From Polytrichum commune (Eukaryota > Streptophyta > Polytrichopsida > Polytrichales > Polytrichaceae): a stretch of DNA of 64,000 nucleotides. Shown in pieces: positions 26,038 through 33,950 of the stretch. Within the stretch, counting starts at the first letter, position 1, and every line of letters begins with the position of its first letter. The stretch spans positions 69,044,033 to 69,108,032 of the forward strand of contig OX485804.1 in assembly GCA_950295325.1 (NCBI GenBank). Reading direction: 5' to 3'. The position numbers were made by a program, and so were the translations under genes. The notes below the pieces were generated by a model, which worked only from the letters and a program-made list of their open reading frames with translations, searched no databases and had not been told where the DNA came from.

Positions 26038-26265
26038 CTATTGTACCATTCCAAATAACCCAATTGCTGTGCAATCTAGCTGTGTTAAATACTTCCCCAA
26101 AACTCTGGGTGTAGCGGCAAGAGTTTTGTGTTGTTCCTTTGGAGCTTTTGCTTCATGAACTCCGACTAAAAATAACCTCCCTTGCTCGGGGTCGAATTCA
26201 TCAAATTGAATTACAGACTCCGCCTCCCAGTTGCCATCAAGTTCGCAGCCGGTTTGGGTTTTTTT

Positions 26266-26503
26266 TGTAGAAGACTAACTAACTGCCGAGACTAACACGC
26301 CGCTTAGAGACAGAACTCACTGGCTCGGAACATACAGTTCAAATTAAGCCTCAAATGGTCTTGGGATATATACATGGTGTTAGCCCTAATTAATTAAATG
26401 CTAACCCTAACCAGTAATCCCTAACCCTAAACTAATCCCCTACTCCTAAACCTAAGGAACTAATGTACACTTGGATGAAGCCTTGTAAGCAGATGGTCCA
26501 ACA
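26266..26503 (-). repeat. copia 3' LTR (left copy)
   Basis: A 238-bp LTR identical to the right copy except at one site (CCCTAA here, CGCTAA there, near the middle of the telomere-like segment). It contains several CCCTAAC or CCCTAAA motifs resembling teloboxes, and a TATATA-type sequence. Confidence 0.95.
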
Positions 26504-26512
26504 CCCCCTCTT
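26504..26512 (-). other. copia polypurine tract
   Basis: Read on the minus strand this is AAGAGGGGG, directly preceding the 3' LTR (which begins TGTTGG). It is the expected primer site for plus-strand DNA synthesis. Confidence 0.8.
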
Positions 26513-26594
26513 GCGAACCAGGCACTTGACTGAGCCTTAATTTAGCAGCAGTCGTTGACTTGAGAAACCTCAGAGAGAGAGAGAGAGTGACGCA

Positions 26595-27350
26595 ATGGAT
26601 CTGCGCCTGAGAGAGATTACGTGGGTTCGATTATTGTCGCTCCTGTTGTGGACGTTGTTGGTGATGCTGAAGAAAGCGATTACCCAGTTGATAGAAGTGG
26701 TTGAAAGAGGGGTCTTTGATGTGAGCACTCCGATGGCAGGAAAGAGTGACCAAGATAATTCGAAAGGGAAGGCGACATTACTACCCCCTCTGAGTGACGA
26801 ACTGGTCCTTTCGCGAATTTGGCCTTTAATGCATCAGAGAGTAAACATCTCTCTCCTGTGGAGATTGAGGAGAGTGAATAAAACATGGAAGAGAAAGGTG
26901 GGAGATTCACTGGAGTGGGCAGCTTTAGATATAGTCAAAGTGGATACCCCTGGCCTCATTCGATATTTGAAGAAAATTGGTGAACTCCGCCCTTCGCTAC
27001 GTGAACGAGTAGAGAGCGAATTGGATTCGCTTGCAGTGCTCCTCTGCGAGCATCTCTCCGATTTTGCCTCTTCGCCAAAGTTGTCTTCGTTGGATGCAGG
27101 TAGAATCGAGGTGTCCAAGGCCGTCGAAGAGGAGAGCAGGGTTGGCTCCTCGTCGAAAGGGGGTACAGGCAGTGCTGTGAAGAACAGGGGCTATGTTTGT
27201 AGGTGGATTGATTACACAGGGTTTGAGAATTTCCAGGAGAGAAGTAGAAATGAATATGACTGGAGTGAGGAAGAAGAAATCGAGGCCTATGCGTCTTCTT
27301 CTGAGAGCTCAATGAGAGCATACTATCCCCGTCATGCAGTGAGGTTTTGA
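26595..27350 (+). CDS. F-box-like protein carried antisense inside the copia element
   Basis: This is a 251-codon ORF on the strand opposite to gag-pol. It starts 92 bp inside the left LTR and overlaps the RNase H stop by 19 bp, tail to tail. The N-terminus has a hydrophobic helix (WVRLLSLLLWTLLVMLKKAI, residues 10-29). Residues about 64-115 resemble an F-box-like segment (LPPLSDELVLSRIWPLM, then SLLWRLRRVNKTWKRKV and WAALDIVKVDTPG). The C-terminal third is Ser/Gly- and acid-rich (SEEEEIEAYASSSESS). A GA repeat lies just before the ATG. F-box proteins usually serve as substrate adaptors of SCF ubiquitin ligases; no partner domain is recognised here. It looks like a captured host gene. Antisense ORFs between pol and the 3' LTR are known from some plant retrotransposons. 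Expression is unknown. Confidence 0.65.
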   Translation: MDLRLREITWVRLLSLLLWTLLVMLKKAITQLIEVVERGVFDVSTPMAGKSDQDNSKGKATLLPPLSDELVLSRIWPLMHQRVNISLLWRLRRVNKTWKRKVGDSLEWAALDIVKVDTPGLIRYLKKIGELRPSLRERVESELDSLAVLLCEHLSDFASSPKLSSLDAGRIEVSKAVEEESRVGSSSKGGTGSAVKNRGYVCRWIDYTGFENFQERSRNEYDWSEEEEIEAYASSSESSMRAYYPRHAVRF

Positions 27351-28873
27351 CTTGGCTGAGTGCAAAGATGAAGTTTGTCTCTGCAATTTTCAAACTTGAT
27401 CCTCCCTAAGGATTTAGTGAGTATATCGGCAGGTTGCTCTTGAGAAGGGATATATTCTACTTTGATTGTGTTATTTTCAACCTTTTGACGAGTGTAATGG
27501 AAGTCAATTTCAAAATGTTTGGATCTCTCATGAAATACAGGATTGTAACTAAGTTTTATACTGCTTTGATTGTCACAAAAGAGATAAGTGGGTTTGTCAT
27601 CCAAAATTCTAAGTTCTTCTAGTAACCTCCGTAACCAAATAGCTTCGCATGTACATTGAGCAAGAGCTCTGTATTCTGATTCACAAGACGATCTAGAGGT
27701 ACTAGATTGTTTCTTGGAATTCCAAGAGATGGGAGAGGTTCCAAGAAAGAAAATGTATGCGCCCACCGAAATTCTATCATCGATGTCTTGTCCATAGTCC
27801 GCATTGGTATAACCATGCAGACGATTCTCCTCCCCTTGTTTAAAAAACAAGCCCAAGTCTGGATACCGACGGACATATCGCAAAATGTGTTTGGTTGCTT
27901 GTAGGTGGGCTTCTTGTGGATTTTGCATGAACCTGCTGACTACACTAACTGCATGGGTGAGGTCAGGGCGAGTTTTGGTGAGAAAGAGAAGTTTGCCTAC
28001 AAGCATGCGGTAAAGTGTAGCATCTACAGGAGGGGTGTCAGAGTTTTTGGATAGACTAAGACCTTCAGGGAGTGGGGTCAGAGAGGGCTTACAGTCCTCC
28101 ATTTGGAAAAACTGAAGAATGCTCAGGGCATATTGTCGTTGATGCATGTGGAGGCCGGTGGCGGTGCGGTCAAACTGAACTCCCAGGTATCGACTAATCG
28201 GACCGAGATCGTTGGTCTTGAATTGTTGTTGCAAGTGGGTCTTCAGCTGGGCGAGAAGCTTGGAGTTACTGCCGGTTAGAAGGATGTCGTCTACATAGAC
28301 GAGCAGAGCGACAGTGTGGGAGCCTATATGGGCAAAATAAAGGTTAGGATCCGAGAGAGACTGGATGAGGCCCCAGGCGAGAAGTGCTGCGTGGAGGCGA
28401 GCATACCACGCCCTAGGACTTTGTTTGAGGCCATATAGAGCTTTATGTAGTTTGCAGACTAGATGCTCTTCGCCAGGTTTGGCAAAACCAGGAGGCTGGT
28501 GCATGTAGACATCTTCTTGTAGAATGCCATTCAAGAAAGCAGTGAGAACATCCAGTTGATGTAGAGGCCAGTTGAGATGAACGGCGATAGCAATGAGCAC
28601 ACGAATCGTTTCCCAACGAACAACTGGAGCAAAAGTTTCTAAAAAATCCACGCCGTCTTTCTGCTGGAAGCCTCGGGCTACAAGGCGAGCCTTATAGCGA
28701 GTAGGATTGGCTGTGGTAGTAGGTTTGATTTTGTATACCCACTTGGAGGAGATGGCCGTTTTGTCTGGAGGTAATGGAACGAGAGACCATGTTTGATTGT
28801 GATGGATAGAGTCCATCTCAGCCTGCATGGCAGACTTCCAATGGGGGTTTAGGTGAGCCTGTTGGAATGTCAA
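27332..28873 (-). CDS. pol: copia reverse transcriptase and RNase H
   Basis: This 513-codon frame holds the RT core. Markers are WKSAMQAEMDSI, WVYKIK, KARLVARGFQQ, VYMHQPPGF, LYGLKQSPRAWY, the catalytic YVDDILLTG, and RNase H signatures (SCESEYRALA, LFCDNQSSI, KHFEIDFHYTR, PADILTK). The frame is open upstream of the first Met as far as the G run at 29117-29129, where it loses register with the integrase frame. It ends with its own stop next to the opposite-strand ORF. It would normally be translated as the C-terminal part of a single copia polyprotein. Confidence 0.93.
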   Translation of the reverse strand: MTFQQAHLNPHWKSAMQAEMDSIHHNQTWSLVPLPPDKTAISSKWVYKIKPTTTANPTRYKARLVARGFQQKDGVDFLETFAPVVRWETIRVLIAIAVHLNWPLHQLDVLTAFLNGILQEDVYMHQPPGFAKPGEEHLVCKLHKALYGLKQSPRAWYARLHAALLAWGLIQSLSDPNLYFAHIGSHTVALLVYVDDILLTGSNSKLLAQLKTHLQQQFKTNDLGPISRYLGVQFDRTATGLHMHQRQYALSILQFFQMEDCKPSLTPLPEGLSLSKNSDTPPVDATLYRMLVGKLLFLTKTRPDLTHAVSVVSRFMQNPQEAHLQATKHILRYVRRYPDLGLFFKQGEENRLHGYTNADYGQDIDDRISVGAYIFFLGTSPISWNSKKQSSTSRSSCESEYRALAQCTCEAIWLRRLLEELRILDDKPTYLFCDNQSSIKLSYNPVFHERSKHFEIDFHYTRQKVENNTIKVEYIPSQEQPADILTKSLGRIKFENCRDKLHLCTQPSQNLTA

Positions 28874-29106: not shown

Positions 29107-31122
29107 TTAGAGCCCTGGGGGGGGGGGGGAAGCAGGGTCGGCGAAAGAAGAGACTGGATTGTCGAAGGAAGAGGCTGGGTCGTCAGAGTGAGAGGGTATG
29201 TCGGGGTCGGTAAGAGCCAGACGTTCCTCTCGTCGCGTAGGAGCGGGGGTCGAGTCCAGAGGGACATCCTCCCTGACAGAAGGAGAGGTTAATTCGAGGG
29301 AGGGAGTTTCATCTACCACAACATCTCTGGAGATGAAAACCTTCTTTGTTGAGGGTCTGTAACATCTGTAGGCCTTGGTTCCCGAATCGAAACTTAGTAG
29401 TATACATTTTTCGGAGCGGGGGTCGAACTTCGACTGGGAAGGCTTGATAGTTCGAACATAGACAGGTGACCCAAAGATTTTTAAGTGGGAGATCGAAGGC
29501 TTCTTACCCGAGAAAAGTTCTTCGGGTGTCTTGTCAGGATGTCGTTTGGTGGAGCGGAGGTTGAGCAGGTCTCCAGCTGCCTTGACTGCTTCGCCCCAAA
29601 GGTGACCAGGAAGGCCCTTGTCGAGTAGCAGGCACCTGGTGATGTTGAGTAAGGATCGATTACGCCGCTCAGCTACTCCATTCCGCTGCGGAGTGTATGG
29701 TGGAGCGAATTCTCTCGCTATACCTTCATTGAGACAATAGTCTCGAAATGCAGAGGACGTATATTCGCCGCCATTGTCCGAGCGTAGGGTCTGAATACAT
29801 TGGCCCGTAGAAGTTTTGAAAGAATTGACTAAGTGTTGAAACTTAGTAAGCACTTGGCTTTTGTGGGCCAGAAAGTATATCCAAGTTTTCCTCGAAAAAT
29901 CGTCGATAAAAGTTACAAAGTATCGCGCTCCTCCTAATGAGGTCGTGCGGAATGGACCGCAGACGTCAGAGTGCACTAATTGAAGAATTTTTGTTGCATT
30001 GAAAGTTGCTTCTTTCGGCAGTTTCGTTCTTGTCTGCTTCCCCAGTTGACACCCCGTGCACACTTGTCGCGAGAAATGTAACGTTGGTAAGCCACGAACC
30101 GCTTCAGAATTGAGCATTCTTTGCATGCCCTTGGCATGGAAATGTCCTAATCGTTTGTGCCACAAATCTGATGAGGAGTGTCTTTGAACCAAGTTGACCT
30201 CTGAGTGCTGAAGTTGACGGAGGTTCGAGAGCCTGTAGAGACCTCGACCGTGTTCCCTTGAGGCAAAAGCTTCAAGTTGAAGGTTGTAGTTGTTAAATAC
30301 AAAACATCCATCAGATTTAAAGACAAGGGTTTTGTGTTGATCGGCGAGAGCTCCGACACTAAGTAGATTTTTAGTGATCCCTGGAGCGTACAAAACAGAA
30401 TTGATAGACTTTATTTCCCCAGAAGATAGCTGGAGTGCGACATTTCCGACTCCGGCAACAGAATGGCTATGGCCTCCCGCCGACCTAACTTGGGCTCCAC
30501 TAGTAGAGCGAATGGAGGTAAAAGCTGATTTTTCACCCGACACATGGTGAGTTGCTCCTGAATCCAGATACCAAGAAGCGGTGTTCTGGGGAGTTTCTAC
30601 CAAATTCAATTCTATCAAGCATGCATTGACTACCTGATCTGCGGTTTCGTGATCATCCGGAGGTTCGTCTTGTGAAAACAAATCGCTTGGCTCCTCTAGA
30701 TGATGTACTTGCCCATTCAGATTGCGTTGTCGTTGCTCGAGTAGACGGTGCTCATAATCCTTCATTCTATCTAGAATAGATCGAAGGTCGCACTCTCTTT
30801 CATAGTGACCAGGAAGACCACAGAAGTCACACTTGTCGTTTCGAGGTCGATCTGGTCCCCTGTTTCGGTACCTAGGTTGGTACTGGGTTGATGATGAGTT
30901 TCTTGGGTGTCTGGATGAAGAGCCTCCTTGGTTCTCCTGGTTGAAGGGTCTGTTTACTGAATGAGTGCCAGACTCAGAGCGCCATCTGCCGTTCGAGATG
31001 AACCTTGAGTTCTGTGCTATTGGTGAGTTGTGAGAACGTGAAACGGTCTGTGGCCGTTTGTTCCGGTCCCGATGTACAAACAGAGCTTCGCTCTCCTCCT
31101 TCTGTTCGTTCTCCATCTTCAA
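29107..31122 (-). CDS. pol: copia nucleocapsid zinc knuckle, protease and integrase
   Basis: The frame is open for 671 codons. In order it has a CCHC zinc knuckle (CDFCGLPGHYEREC), the aspartic protease site (WYLDSGATHHVSG), and the integrase HHCC region (LWHKRLGHFHAKGM, then CTGCQLGKQ). The integrase catalytic core follows (HSDVCGPF, DDFSRKTWIYFL, LRSDNGGEYTS, TPQRNGVAERRNRSL), then the integrase tail (FGSPVYVR). The frame is continuous with gag upstream apart from one TAG codon. Downstream it runs into a 13-base C run (coding strand) and terminates just after it, out of register with RT. Confidence 0.93.
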   Translation of the reverse strand: MKMENEQKEESEALFVHRDRNKRPQTVSRSHNSPIAQNSRFISNGRWRSESGTHSVNRPFNQENQGGSSSRHPRNSSSTQYQPRYRNRGPDRPRNDKCDFCGLPGHYERECDLRSILDRMKDYEHRLLEQRQRNLNGQVHHLEEPSDLFSQDEPPDDHETADQVVNACLIELNLVETPQNTASWYLDSGATHHVSGEKSAFTSIRSTSGAQVRSAGGHSHSVAGVGNVALQLSSGEIKSINSVLYAPGITKNLLSVGALADQHKTLVFKSDGCFVFNNYNLQLEAFASREHGRGLYRLSNLRQLQHSEVNLVQRHSSSDLWHKRLGHFHAKGMQRMLNSEAVRGLPTLHFSRQVCTGCQLGKQTRTKLPKEATFNATKILQLVHSDVCGPFRTTSLGGARYFVTFIDDFSRKTWIYFLAHKSQVLTKFQHLVNSFKTSTGQCIQTLRSDNGGEYTSSAFRDYCLNEGIAREFAPPYTPQRNGVAERRNRSLLNITRCLLLDKGLPGHLWGEAVKAAGDLLNLRSTKRHPDKTPEELFSGKKPSISHLKIFGSPVYVRTIKPSQSKFDPRSEKCILLSFDSGTKAYRCYRPSTKKVFISRDVVVDETPSLELTSPSVREDVPLDSTPAPTRREERLALTDPDIPSHSDDPASSFDNPVSSFADPASPPPPGL
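29117..29129. other. 13-bp G homopolymer causing a frame change in copia pol
   Basis: The G run (C on the coding strand) sits in the Pro/Ser-rich linker between integrase and RT. A one-base length change here would restore a single frame, so this may be a real slippage mutation or a sequencing or assembly error. Confidence 0.75.
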
Positions 31123-31155
31123 GGCAGTCTCCTCCGAGATCAGTTTTGCTTCTAG

Positions 31156-31776
31156 CTACTCGAAGGTTGGCAGTGTCTGGGCCGCTATTTGCATGCGTTT
31201 GAATATCTCATATTCCTTGGGAAGGTTCTTCAATGTGTAGAATACTATAACATCCTCAGGTATGTTAACTTCCACCTCTTCTAAGAGGTTCGCCACCTCT
31301 TTCACTTCAGTGAGATGGGTATCCATGGACACAGATTCAGTTTTCCGCATTGCGAAAAACTTTTCAAGAAGCATCACTCGACGCGGACCGCTATCTGATT
31401 CATAACGACTCTTTAGGCTTGTCCAACACTCATAGGGATCCTTGTAGCGTCGTAGAAGCTTAAGGGCACTATTCTTTGCATTACTATTGATAATGCTCAT
31501 AACTTGTTGGCGTGCTAATCTCTCTTCCTCACTCATGTGCTCGCTAGGTGGCGTGAGACAATAGTGGAATCTACCATCCTTTTGTAATAGACTCTTCATT
31601 CTATAAGCCCATACTCCAAAGGTACCTCCTCCATCAAGGTGGTATGATTCTGGAAGGGTGTTGTCTCCGGTCATGGTGAAACGGTGATTCCTAGGAGGTG
31701 GCGGACTACTTTCAGTGTCAGCTGGAGGAGAGTTTAGCGGCGGATTATCTGCGGTGTCAGTTTCGACGGTAGACAT
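31156..31776 (-). CDS. gag: copia gag (capsid) with premature TAG
   Basis: The frame starts with ATG at 31776. Near residue 35 it carries the capsid-type block NTLPESYHLDGGGTFGVWAY. It follows the UBN2/retrotran_gag_2 pattern with SALKLLRRYKDPYECW, LEKFFAMRKTESVSMDTHL and FYTLKNLPKEYEIF. It ends at TAG (31156-31158); translation past it continues in the same frame (LEAKLISEETAL) into the zinc-knuckle frame. So the stop is a point lesion or a readthrough codon rather than the normal copia arrangement of one uninterrupted frame. Confidence 0.88.
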   Translation of the reverse strand: MSTVETDTADNPPLNSPPADTESSPPPPRNHRFTMTGDNTLPESYHLDGGGTFGVWAYRMKSLLQKDGRFHYCLTPPSEHMSEEERLARQQVMSIINSNAKNSALKLLRRYKDPYECWTSLKSRYESDSGPRRVMLLEKFFAMRKTESVSMDTHLTEVKEVANLLEEVEVNIPEDVIVFYTLKNLPKEYEIFKRMQIAAQTLPTFE

Positions 31777-31832
31777 CTGAGAGGAAGAGACAGACAACAA
31801 TTTCCTACCTCTATACTAACTATCATGAACCT

Positions 31833-31844
31833 GCTCTGATACCA
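31833..31844 (-). other. copia primer-binding site (initiator Met tRNA)
   Basis: On the minus strand this reads TGGTATCAGAGC, directly following the 5' LTR with no spacer. It is complementary to the 3' end of plant initiator methionine tRNA, the usual copia primer. Confidence 0.92.
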
Positions 31845-32082
31845 TGTAGAAGACTAACTAACTGCCGAGACTAACACGCCGCTTAGAGACAGAACTCACT
31901 GGCTCGGAACATACAGTTCAAATTAAGCCTCAAATGGTCTTGGGATATATACATGGTGTTAGCCCTAATTAATTAAATGCTAACCCTAACCAGTAATCGC
32001 TAACCCTAAACTAATCCCCTACTCCTAAACCTAAGGAACTAATGTACACTTGGATGAAGCCTTGTAAGCAGATGGTCCAACA
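31845..32082 (-). repeat. copia 5' LTR (right copy)
   Basis: A 238-bp LTR bounded by TG and CA on the plus strand, abutting TTTTT at 32083-32087. On the minus strand it would provide the promoter for the retroelement. Only one substitution separates it from the left LTR. Confidence 0.95.
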
Positions 32083-32159
32083 TTTTTTTCCTGCTTCAAT
32101 TTTCCTTCAAAAGCTTGGATGCTCCGGTGAGGTGTTCGAGAGGCTCCCAGGTTCCATCC

Positions 32160-32882
32160 GACATCGGCCAACCCTCCCATTTCAAAAAAACTCTTGTCCA
32201 CCCTTCTCGTTGATCCGGTCTTGAAGTATTCTCTCCATCTCTCAATCACCATCTTCATCGTCATCGCTACTTTTGGACTCATAACCTTTTTGCTCCAATT
32301 TTTCTGCAACGATTTTCTCGTTGTCATGAGGAGGAAGTTCTCTCAGAAGAACTTGATTTGTCCCGCAACAGTCCCAGCATTTCCATAGCACCCTTTTTCT
32401 TTTCCCTCTCCGACCTTGCAAGTAGTGGTGTAATGGCCACTTGTTGAATTGCATATTTCACATCCAGAAGTCTGTAGTTTTTTCTTGAAGCACTTGCCAA
32501 GAGGAAGCAGGCTTTCTCTGAACTTTTTGCTCTAATTTCTCCACAACGATTTTCTCGTTGTCATGAGGAGGAAGTTCTCTCAGAAGAACTTGAATTGTCC
32601 CGCAGTAGTCCCAGCATTTCCATAGCCCCCTGTCTTTTTCCCTCTCCGACCTTGCAAGTACGTAATGGTGTACCGGCCACTCTTTGACTTGCATATTTCA
32701 CATCCACAAGTCTGTAGTTCTTCTTTGAAGCACTTGCCAAGAGGGAAGCAAGCTTTCTCTGAGTTTGCCATTCCTGCTTGACCCACCTTCTGCTGGGTGG
32801 TGAACAATGAAGAATTCCTTGTTGTTGTTGTTGTTGTTGTTAGGAGAATCGTCGTCTGCTTTCTTCTTCGTCATCTAATATA
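32160..32882 (-). pseudogene. decayed tandem copies of a zinc-ribbon gene
   Basis: Reading leftward from an ATG at 32875 (MTKKKADDDSP, then an Asn run from a GTT microsatellite, then FFIVHHPAEG), at least two and a half degenerate copies follow. Each carries pieces of the intact neighbour's pattern in shifting frames: CEICKSKSGRYT or CEICNSTSGHYTT, and KCWDYCGTIQV or KCWDCCGTNQV. Both copies share an identical LRELPPHDNEKIV tail and the same internal frame change, so that lesion probably preceded the tandem duplication. The unit is about 240 bp. Confidence 0.65.
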
Positions 32883-33539: not shown

Positions 33540-33950
33540 TGATTTGGACTGTTACTTTTACTTTTACTTCAACCTGAACATTTACCTTTACTTTTCTTGA
33601 CATCCAAGTTCCAATTTACAGGAGAGTGTCTATTTATCACTTTTACTTTTTCATTTACTTTTTCATTTACTTTTACTTTTACTTTTACTTTTCTGGACGT
33701 CCAAGTTCCAATTTACAAGAGCATATGTAATTTTCCCTTTTACTTTTACTTTTACCTTTACCTTTACTTTTCTGGACATCCAAGTTCCAATTTACAAGAG
33801 CATATGTAATTTCCCCTTTTACTTTTACTTTTATATTTACATTTACCTTTACTTTCTGGGATATCCCAGATTCAATCTGCAAGAGTGTGTCTAATTTTTA
33901 CTTTTACTTTTCTACAAAAATCACTTCCGGCTACTGTTTATTTTACCATT
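33540..33950. repeat. TTTTAC microsatellite with embedded ~75-110 bp tandem repeats
   Basis: Runs of (CTTTTA)n alternate with three or four copies of a segment containing CATCCAAGTTCCAATTTACA followed by GAGCATATGTAATTT or a variant. It lies upstream of the intact zinc-ribbon ORF. A TTA microsatellite follows at 33957-33982. Confidence 0.8.

What the first reader, a model, noticed from the sequence alone, without database searches (positions are those of the whole stretch)
26595..27350. Young copia element carrying an antisense F-box-like, membrane-anchor-bearing ORF
A 251-codon intact ORF lies opposite to gag-pol between RNase H and the 3' LTR, in an element whose LTRs differ at one of 238 sites. 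It has an N-terminal hydrophobic helix, an F-box-like core and an acidic tail, none of which belongs to a retrotransposon. This looks like gene capture by a copia element. If the ORF is shared by other copies, the family may carry a modifier of host ubiquitination or silencing. The ORF is intact while gag-pol is broken, which is odd.
Basis: partly seen in the sequence, partly recalled or inferred. Interest (0 to 1): 0.8.

Follow-up and report, generated by a model that had tools for sequence, protein, structure and literature searches.

The report
Conserved backwards gene in moss retrotransposons
A family of recently active copia jumping genes in what looks like a moss genome carries, on the opposite strand, an extra gene kept intact by natural selection; its protein has a likely membrane-binding helix and a remote F-box-like core shared with other mobile DNA, hinting that these elements meddle with a host pathway.

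Summary
Window 26595-27350 (+) is an intact 251-codon ORF antisense to gag-pol, between RNase H and the 3' LTR of a copia element whose LTRs differ at 1 of 238 sites. It is not a chance ORF. In the same genome (by PsaD, a moss), all 24 long matches (at least 190 aa) lie tail-to-tail with RNase H of one copia clade, 20 without stops; 32 of 34 RNase H matches of that clade have it; seven loci of other copia families do not. Most copies are 46-56% identical to it, with dN/dS about 0.1 in the N-terminal helix and core; 7 of 11 re-examined copies have identical LTRs. So it is an old, selected accessory gene of a recently mobile family. The F-box reading is plausible but remote: Pfam finds none in the copia protein. 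Its core is homologous to other ORFs of this genome (some beside CACTA transposase ORFs). That superfamily's profile matches the genome's own F-boxes at 93.7% probability (0 of 100 shuffles); the copia core alone reaches 7%, and the signal comes mainly from the relatives. Structure prediction was uninformative. Best guess: an antisense-transcribed, membrane-associated adaptor acting on a host factor, perhaps in silencing. Function is inferred.

The parts
26595..27350 (+). Antisense accessory ORF (251 aa) including stop
   Evidence: 58 matches in own genome; selection
26595..26729 (+). Codons 1-45: conserved N-terminal hydrophobic/amphipathic helix (MDLRLREITWVRLLSLLLWT...)
   Evidence: alignment A1; helix 3-44 with block pLDDT 81-95 over residues 1-40; hydropathy; median dN/dS 0.12
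26772..27050 (+). Codons 60-152: F-box-like core (LLPPLSDELVLSRIWPL...LLWRLRRVNKTWKRKV..SLEWAALD) plus following helix
   Evidence: A1; superfamily and F-box profile tests; median dN/dS 0.10
27267..27347 (+). Codons 225-251: conserved C-terminal tail with the invariant triplet Pro-Arg-His
   Evidence: P245, R246, H247 invariant in 17 sequences; median dN/dS 0.24
26266..26503 (-). 3' LTR of the element (TG..CA); lies just upstream of the accessory ORF
26404..26430 (+). Two ACCCTAA (telobox-like, name recalled) motifs in the 3' LTR on the strand of the accessory ORF
   Evidence: motif enrichment (13 in 9 of 9 LTRs, resampled mean 0.5); positions read
26504..26594 (+). 91-bp leader between the 3' LTR and the ATG; its first bases read GAGGGGG on the minus strand, the likely polypurine tract of the element
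27332..28873 (-). pol 3' part: RT (RVT_2, 3.4e-75) and RNase H; overlaps the accessory ORF end by 19 bp
29107..31815 (-). gag - protease - integrase part, interrupted at about 31156
31825..31844 (-). Primer binding site TGGTATCAGAGC... (tRNA-Met type; identification recalled)
   Evidence: sequence
31845..32082 (-). 5' LTR
26261..26265 (.). Target site duplication TTTTT, left copy (right copy 32083-32087); lies in T runs, so weak on its own
   Evidence: flanks printed

Best explanation
The ORF is the accessory gene of a clade of Ty1/copia elements in a moss: an old, vertically inherited, protein-coding gene, antisense to gag-pol, in the slot where other plant LTR elements carry antisense extra ORFs. 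Shown: constant position, conservation, purifying selection, recent mobility of the carriers. Inferred: the mRNA starts in the 3' LTR region on the antisense strand, 58-91 nt of leader separating LTR and ATG (10 LTRs). The protein attaches to a membrane by its N-terminal helix. Its F-box-like core docks on a SKP1-type E3 component or a similar helical partner, while the fast-evolving segment (153-224) and acidic tail face a host target. The most likely benefit is to weaken a host restriction of the element, plausibly RNA silencing provoked by its own convergent transcripts. The probability given is for 'selected accessory gene with F-box-derived core'; the silencing step alone I would put near 0.2.
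For: All 24 matches of at least 190 aa lie tail-to-tail with RH of one clade, 20 of 24 stop-free. 32 of 34 RH matches of the clade (66% identity or more; 150 of 991 candidates scored) have an ORF match within 2.5 kb. pN 0.312 against pS 0.734 pooled over 120 pairs; median dN/dS 0.18 overall, 0.12 helix, 0.10 core, 0.67 variable part; pol control 0.047 on 6 finite pairs of 36. 7 of 11 copies have identical LTRs, 9 of 11 show exact 5-bp target duplications. Purine at -3 of the ATG in 18 of 18 copies (three near-identical pairs among them); no ATG in the last 55 nt of leader in 15 of 17. Core homologous to other ORFs of the genome (hhalign 97.7%; pairwise 89-96%). Superfamily core against 20 F-box domains of this genome 93.7%, pairwise E 2e-7, 0 of 100 column shuffles; reversed F-box 0.1%. 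PF00646 is the top, sub-threshold Pfam hit of 4 of 10 non-copia relatives scanned.
Against: The copia family alone scores 1.5% (whole protein) or 7.3% (core, 1 of 100 shuffles as good) against F-box. The relatives without the copia family score 91.6%, so the signal is mainly theirs. No copia member has a Pfam F-box hit, and 6 of 10 relatives have none. The Leu-Pro of F-boxes is lost. No confident fold: mean pLDDT 50 and 63, no Foldseek match with E at most 0.001. dS is saturated, so the ratios are rough. No transcript data. A TATAWA motif on the antisense strand of the LTR is in only 4 of 10 LTRs (expected 2.6).
Confidence: 0.55

Rival explanations
1. Selected accessory gene, but the core is not an F-box: an independent small helical domain (for example nucleic-acid binding, as proposed for Retand TRP28), whose resemblance to F-box is convergent or accidental.
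For: Copia core alone 7.3%, whole protein 1.5%; Pfam and PDB profile searches without a credible hit for the copia protein; structure model inconclusive.
Against: Superfamily-level match to F-box 93.7% with 0 of 100 shuffles and reversed control 0.1%; sub-threshold F-box hits in 4 of 10 relatives; in the profile alignment the core spans about 40 F-box positions.
Confidence: 0.33
2. Env- or movement-like membrane protein: the N-terminal helix is the working part and alters membranes or helps particles move.
For: Conserved helix under strong constraint (median dN/dS 0.12), hydropathy near the transmembrane threshold with an amphipathic moment of 0.30-0.53 in 15 copies.
Against: Antisense orientation does not fit the usual env-like sense mRNA; the core is at least as constrained (0.10) and has relatives without the helix.
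Confidence: 0.08
3. The antisense transcript, not the protein, matters (dsRNA regulation of gag-pol); the ORF is incidental.
For: Convergent overlapping genes; a dsRNA role is discussed for plant elements in PMC7264820 (parts 1 and 2 of 3 of its main section read).
Against: Protein-level constraint, start-codon context and 20 of 24 stop-free long copies point to translation.
Confidence: 0.03
4. Chance or passenger ORF of one young element.
For: gag-pol of this copy is broken.
Against: Present beside 32 of 34 RH matches of the clade; dN/dS far below 1.
Confidence: 0.01

Closest known systems
Antisense extra ORFs of plant LTR retrotransposons (aORF-3R / eORF-3'R: maize Grande gene23, rice RIRE2, Silene Retand, Phaseolus PvRetro13); PMC7264820 (abstract and parts 1-2 of 3 of the main section read), PMC11963269 (passages)
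   Same: Between pol and 3' LTR, antisense, in most copies of a family, conserved; function unknown.
   Different: Retand is gypsy (PMC11963269) and its ORFs carry TRP28 (PF04195); the other three are gypsy by recall; Grande's protein is nuclear. Here the carrier is copia, the region between pol and LTR is under 1 kb, the protein starts with a hydrophobic helix and has an F-box-like core.
eORFs of Ty1/copia in the REXdb survey (Neumann et al. 2019, PMC6317226; passages seen)
   Same: 582 copia elements with eORFs of at least 250 codons, in 45 groups; reverse-orientation 3' eORFs were a scored class.
   Different: 'f-box' and 'antisense' occur 0 times in its main text. Supplement not read, so this group could be among the 45.
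Polerovirus P0 (viral F-box-like silencing suppressor linked to SKP1 and AGO1; PMC6410027 passages, PMC6593998 listing)
   Same: Protein of a mobile or viral genome with an F-box-like motif; a possible functional analogue.
   Different: No sequence comparison was made; P0 is an RNA virus protein; no silencing assay exists here.
VANC anti-silencing proteins of VANDAL elements (PMC5735166, PMC10398659; search listing with abstract starts only)
   Same: Transposon-encoded accessory protein that counters host silencing.
   Different: DNA transposon (recalled), sequence-specific binding; no evidence that the moss protein binds DNA.

Membership tests
Ty1/copia LTR retrotransposon (the carrier) | INT before RT-RH, copia-type domains, LTRs, target duplication, tRNA primer site | tested here: met
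   RVT_2, rve, gag_pre-integrs, Pol_BBD; LTRs and TTTTT flanks; 9 of 11 other copies with 5-bp duplications
Antisense accessory ORF of plant LTR elements (aORF-3R) | Between pol and 3' LTR, antisense | tested here: met
Antisense accessory ORF of plant LTR elements (aORF-3R) | Present in most copies of the family and conserved | tested here: met
   32 of 34 RH matches of the clade (150 of 991 candidates scored); dN/dS
Antisense accessory ORF of plant LTR elements (aORF-3R) | Antisense transcript from its own promoter (reported for Grande) | not testable with these tools
   no RNA data; TATAWA in 4 of 10 LTRs, expected 2.6
F-box protein (PF00646/PF12937) | Score above Pfam gathering cut-off | tested here: not met
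   no F-box hit for any of 17 copia-type members nor L028; none of the copia ORF places is among the 126 PF00646 matches of the genome (150 of 252 candidates scored)
F-box protein (PF00646/PF12937) | Remote homology to F-box by profile comparison | tested here: inconclusive
   superfamily 93.7%, copia core alone 7.3%; relatives without copia 91.6%
F-box protein (PF00646/PF12937) | Leu-Pro at the start of helix 1 (recalled) | tested here: not met
   copia copies have LS, LD, LN or LT; relatives L021, L023, L024, L056 and L086 have LP, L026 has LS, group C has LD or LE
F-box protein (PF00646/PF12937) | F-box fold | tested here: inconclusive
   mean pLDDT 63, no useful PDB match
F-box protein (PF00646/PF12937) | Binds SKP1 in an SCF complex | not testable with these tools
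   experiment needed
Retand TRP28 antisense ORF | Transposase 28 domain PF04195 | tested here: not met
   no PF04195 among Pfam hits at E up to 10
Env-like ORF (SIRE, Athila) | Sense orientation downstream of pol | tested here: not met
   antisense

The most novel reading that the evidence does not exclude
Moss mobile elements of at least two unrelated classes (copia on the antisense strand; CACTA beside the transposase) have each adopted a gene of one F-box-derived superfamily, used as an E3-ligase adaptor that removes a host silencing or restriction factor: a transposon counterpart of viral F-box suppressors.
Probability: 0.2. Interest if true: 0.87.

Novelty: new variant of a known kind. 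Interest (0 to 1): 0.62.

Why it matters
Antisense extra ORFs of plant retrotransposons are a known puzzle: conserved and unexplained (PMC7264820), and extra ORFs were counted far more often in gypsy than in copia elements (3,372 against 582; PMC6317226). Here a compact copia family, apparently in a moss, has one with measurable protein-level selection across 16 diverged copies, many recently inserted, and a testable biochemical hint (F-box-like core). If a genetically tractable moss carries it, the role of such genes in transposition could be tested directly. The same core next to CACTA transposase ORFs would suggest a shared counter-host module.

Tried and rejected
Chance or passenger ORF: rejected by the copy survey and dN/dS.

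Capture of a present-day host gene: none of the 24 long matches lies outside the copia clade. 19 of 58 matches lack an RH match within 2.5 kb; all are partial (the longest covers residues 1-167). Only core-level relatives were found elsewhere, so the donor remains unknown.

Direct family assignment: Pfam, PDB sequence and profile searches, AlphaFold and Foldseek gave nothing usable. VIA-align had one chain to look at (3wja, Z 3.2), which I disregard.

Antisense promoter: TATAWA no clearer than chance (4 of 10 LTRs against 2.6 expected).

Carrier of the third relative group (C type, e.g. L052-L059): the repeats share a stretch around the ORF, with tandem repeats upstream, but I could not name the element.

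No tree was built; 'clade' rests on the identity gap (34 matches at 66% or more, the others 42-56%).

Rows dropped: for dN/dS, 2 near-duplicate copies of 18 were left out, and 63 of 120 pairs had no finite or usable dS. The pol control used 10 copies, 9 shared with the ORF set, and only 6 of 36 pairs had a finite pol dS. 20 of 126 F-box matches made the F-box profile. One of 17 group C-type loci given (L056) did not fit the search pattern.

No listed title or abstract start describes a copia antisense F-box-like ORF or one in moss; each listing shows at most 20 papers, and subscription papers and supplements were not searched.

Full report
What is there. The finding lies in a copia element on the minus strand of the window, 5.6 kb between LTR starts: 5' LTR 31845-32082, 3' LTR 26266-26503, one difference in 238, with TTTTT on both sides. 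The internal part starts with TGGTATCAGAGC, a tRNA-Met primer site (identification recalled). Pfam finds the integrase domains in the 29107-31122 frame and RVT_2 in the 27332-28873 frame. The 251-codon ORF 26595-27350 runs on the opposite strand, begins 91 bp inside the 3' LTR and overlaps the end of pol by 19 bp, tail to tail. gag-pol of this copy is interrupted in gag at about 31156 and changes frame near 29.0-29.1 kb.

Whose genome. The window lies in a 408 Mb assembly with seven large contigs. An exon of PsaD matches PDB chains 6l35, 7ksq and 8htu at 187-191 bits, against 169 and less for the next single-domain chains; a three-stretch chain, 9vfj, has the top summed score. I recall those three entries as Physcomitrium patens, so I take the genome for a moss. 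Seven chromosomes would fit Polytrichaceae (recalled, untested).

Is the ORF shared? tblastn in the own genome gives 58 matches; 24 cover at least 190 residues, and 20 of those have no stop. A search with the RNase H end of pol gives 34 matches of 66% identity or more, separated by a gap from the other matches at 42-56% (150 of 991 candidates scored, so counts are lower bounds). All 24 long ORF matches sit tail-to-tail with one of these RH matches, 22 of them 8-30 bp away. 32 of 34 RH matches have an ORF match within 2.5 kb. Of the other two, one has an ORF fragment 17 kb away on the fitting strand, which suggests an insertion, and one is an overlapping opposite-strand RH match. Seven loci from other copia families (RH 44-56% identical) show no such ORF in the 1.5-2 kb examined. 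Nineteen of 58 ORF matches have no RH nearby; all are partial.

Age and activity. Sixteen other copies are 46-66% identical to the window's protein, 14 of them 46-56% (two of the sixteen are partial, and one sibling copy at 99% was left out of that alignment). Yet in 7 of 11 copies whose second LTR I fetched the LTRs are identical, and 9 of 11 show exact 5-bp target duplications. So diverged copies, each with its own intact ORF, have moved recently. Six of 34 RH matches lie in open frames of at least 1,453 codons.

Selection. Across 16 stop-free copies, pooled pN is 0.312 and pS 0.734; pS is at saturation, so the true ratio is probably below the observed 0.43. Median dN/dS of the 57 of 120 usable pairs is 0.18: 0.12 for residues 1-45, 0.10 for 60-152, 0.67 for 153-224, 0.24 for 225-251 (each part with its own usable pairs). 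The six least diverged pairs (dS 0.9-1.2) give 0.16-0.28. RT-RH of the same elements: median dN 0.15 against 0.46 for the ORF, ratio about 0.05 on 6 finite pairs of 36, against 0.21 for the ORF. The ORF thus changes about three times faster than pol but is clearly constrained. Distances of ORF and pol are correlated (r 0.53, 9 of 5000 permutations as high, 9 copies), as for joint inheritance. The start codon has a purine at -3 in 18 of 18 copies.

What the protein looks like. Residues 3-44 form one helix with hydropathy near the transmembrane threshold and an amphipathic moment of 0.30-0.53: a membrane anchor or an in-plane membrane helix; I cannot tell which. Then follow the core (window residues 61-116: TLLPPLSDELVLSRIWPLMHQRVNISLLWRLRRVNKTWKRKVGDSLEWAALDIVKV), a helix-rich stretch, a variable segment and an invariant Pro-Arg-His near the end.

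Is it an F-box? Pfam gives no F-box hit for any of 17 members, and the genome-wide PF00646 search (126 matches, 150 of 252 candidates scored) does not list them. But weak tblastn hits led to other ORFs with the same core. Group B lies upstream of an ORF on the same strand that at one locus carries Transposase_21 (2.1e-64), followed by DUF4218, i.e. a CACTA transposase (L058); the N-terminal part of that ORF is beside 3 of 5 group B loci fetched with 3 kb or more. Group C is a dispersed repeat of unknown type. L023 and L056 are single ORFs. Profile comparison links these to the copia core (97.7% jointly; 96, 89 and 95% for B, C and L023). The joint core of 36 sequences matches a profile of 20 F-boxes of this genome at 93.7%, pairwise E 2e-7, above all 100 column-shuffled controls (best 16.0 against 38.0). 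The copia core alone reaches 7.3% with 1 of 100 controls as good, groups B and C 35% and 46%; whole proteins give 1.5%, 18% and 68%. Without the copia family the relatives still score 91.6%, so they carry most of the signal; reversed F-box gives 0.1%, and 13 pol chunks score at most 13.7. Of 10 non-copia relatives scanned, four have PF00646 as top sub-threshold hit (E 0.014-0.089) and six do not. L021, L024, L086, L023 and L056 keep the Leu-Pro of F-boxes; L026, group C and the copia copies do not. I read this as a superfamily derived from F-box, of which the copia branch has drifted; SKP1 binding is open. Structure prediction did not help.

How it most likely works. Convergent genes with the start next to the LTR imply an antisense mRNA from the 3' LTR region. 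The LTRs carry ACCCTAA motifs on that strand in 9 of 9 cases (13 in all; resampled mean 0.5), but TATA motifs are no clearer than chance. Antisense promoters in other plant elements are reviewed in PMC7264820. A membrane-tethered protein with a degenerate F-box-like docking domain and a fast-evolving segment is what one would expect of a counter-host adaptor, by analogy with polerovirus P0 (PMC6410027, passages). All steps from transcription on are inferred.

Known or new. [quoted passage not shown] the review PMC7264820 names four plant families. Neumann et al. (PMC6317226, passages) counted 582 copia elements with extra ORFs in 45 groups, so this family may have been counted without description. 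I found no report of an F-box-like one in ten searches (listed under Tried and rejected). Hence: new variant of a known kind.

Noticed in passing
G000 C3:40817500-40825500 (L021, L058), L022, L026: A 196-203 aa F-box-like ORF of the same superfamily lies upstream, on the same strand, of an ORF with a CACTA (tnp2) transposase domain (domain checked at one locus); the N-terminal part of that ORF is beside 3 of 5 such loci, not found in L024 and L025.
   Followed up: partly
L052-L055, L057, L059, L076-L085 (several chromosomes): A dispersed repeat family carries an ORF with ..EYNALRLA.. and, in 3 of 4 scanned, a sub-threshold F-box hit, preceded in the loci compared by tandem repeats; element type unknown.
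   Followed up: partly
window 26481-26522 and the same place in 12 other copies: Inverted repeat across the 3' LTR / polypurine tract junction: 10 pairs, 82.9% of cells paired, 4 pairs with changes on both sides; 17 of 500 shuffles reach the covariation score, 58 of 500 the count of two-sided pairs, so support is modest.
   Followed up: partly
G000: C1 33.41-33.51, C2 47.26-47.33, C3 33.16-33.20, C4 35.46-35.51, C5 46.55-46.61, C6 25.45-25.50, C7 13.61-13.68 Mb: Among the 150 scored RH matches, those of other copia families (about 45% identical) crowd in one place on each of the seven large contigs, besides scattered copies, like the putative centromeric RLC5 of Physcomitrium (PMC7466625, passages).
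   Followed up: no
9 LTRs, e.g. window 26404-26430: Telobox-like ACCCTAA motifs in every LTR tested, all on the strand of the accessory ORF.
   Followed up: partly
window 32286-32744 and 33550-33940: Direct repeats outside the element: pairs 237-240 bp apart and a 4-copy array with 79-97 bp spacing.
   Followed up: no
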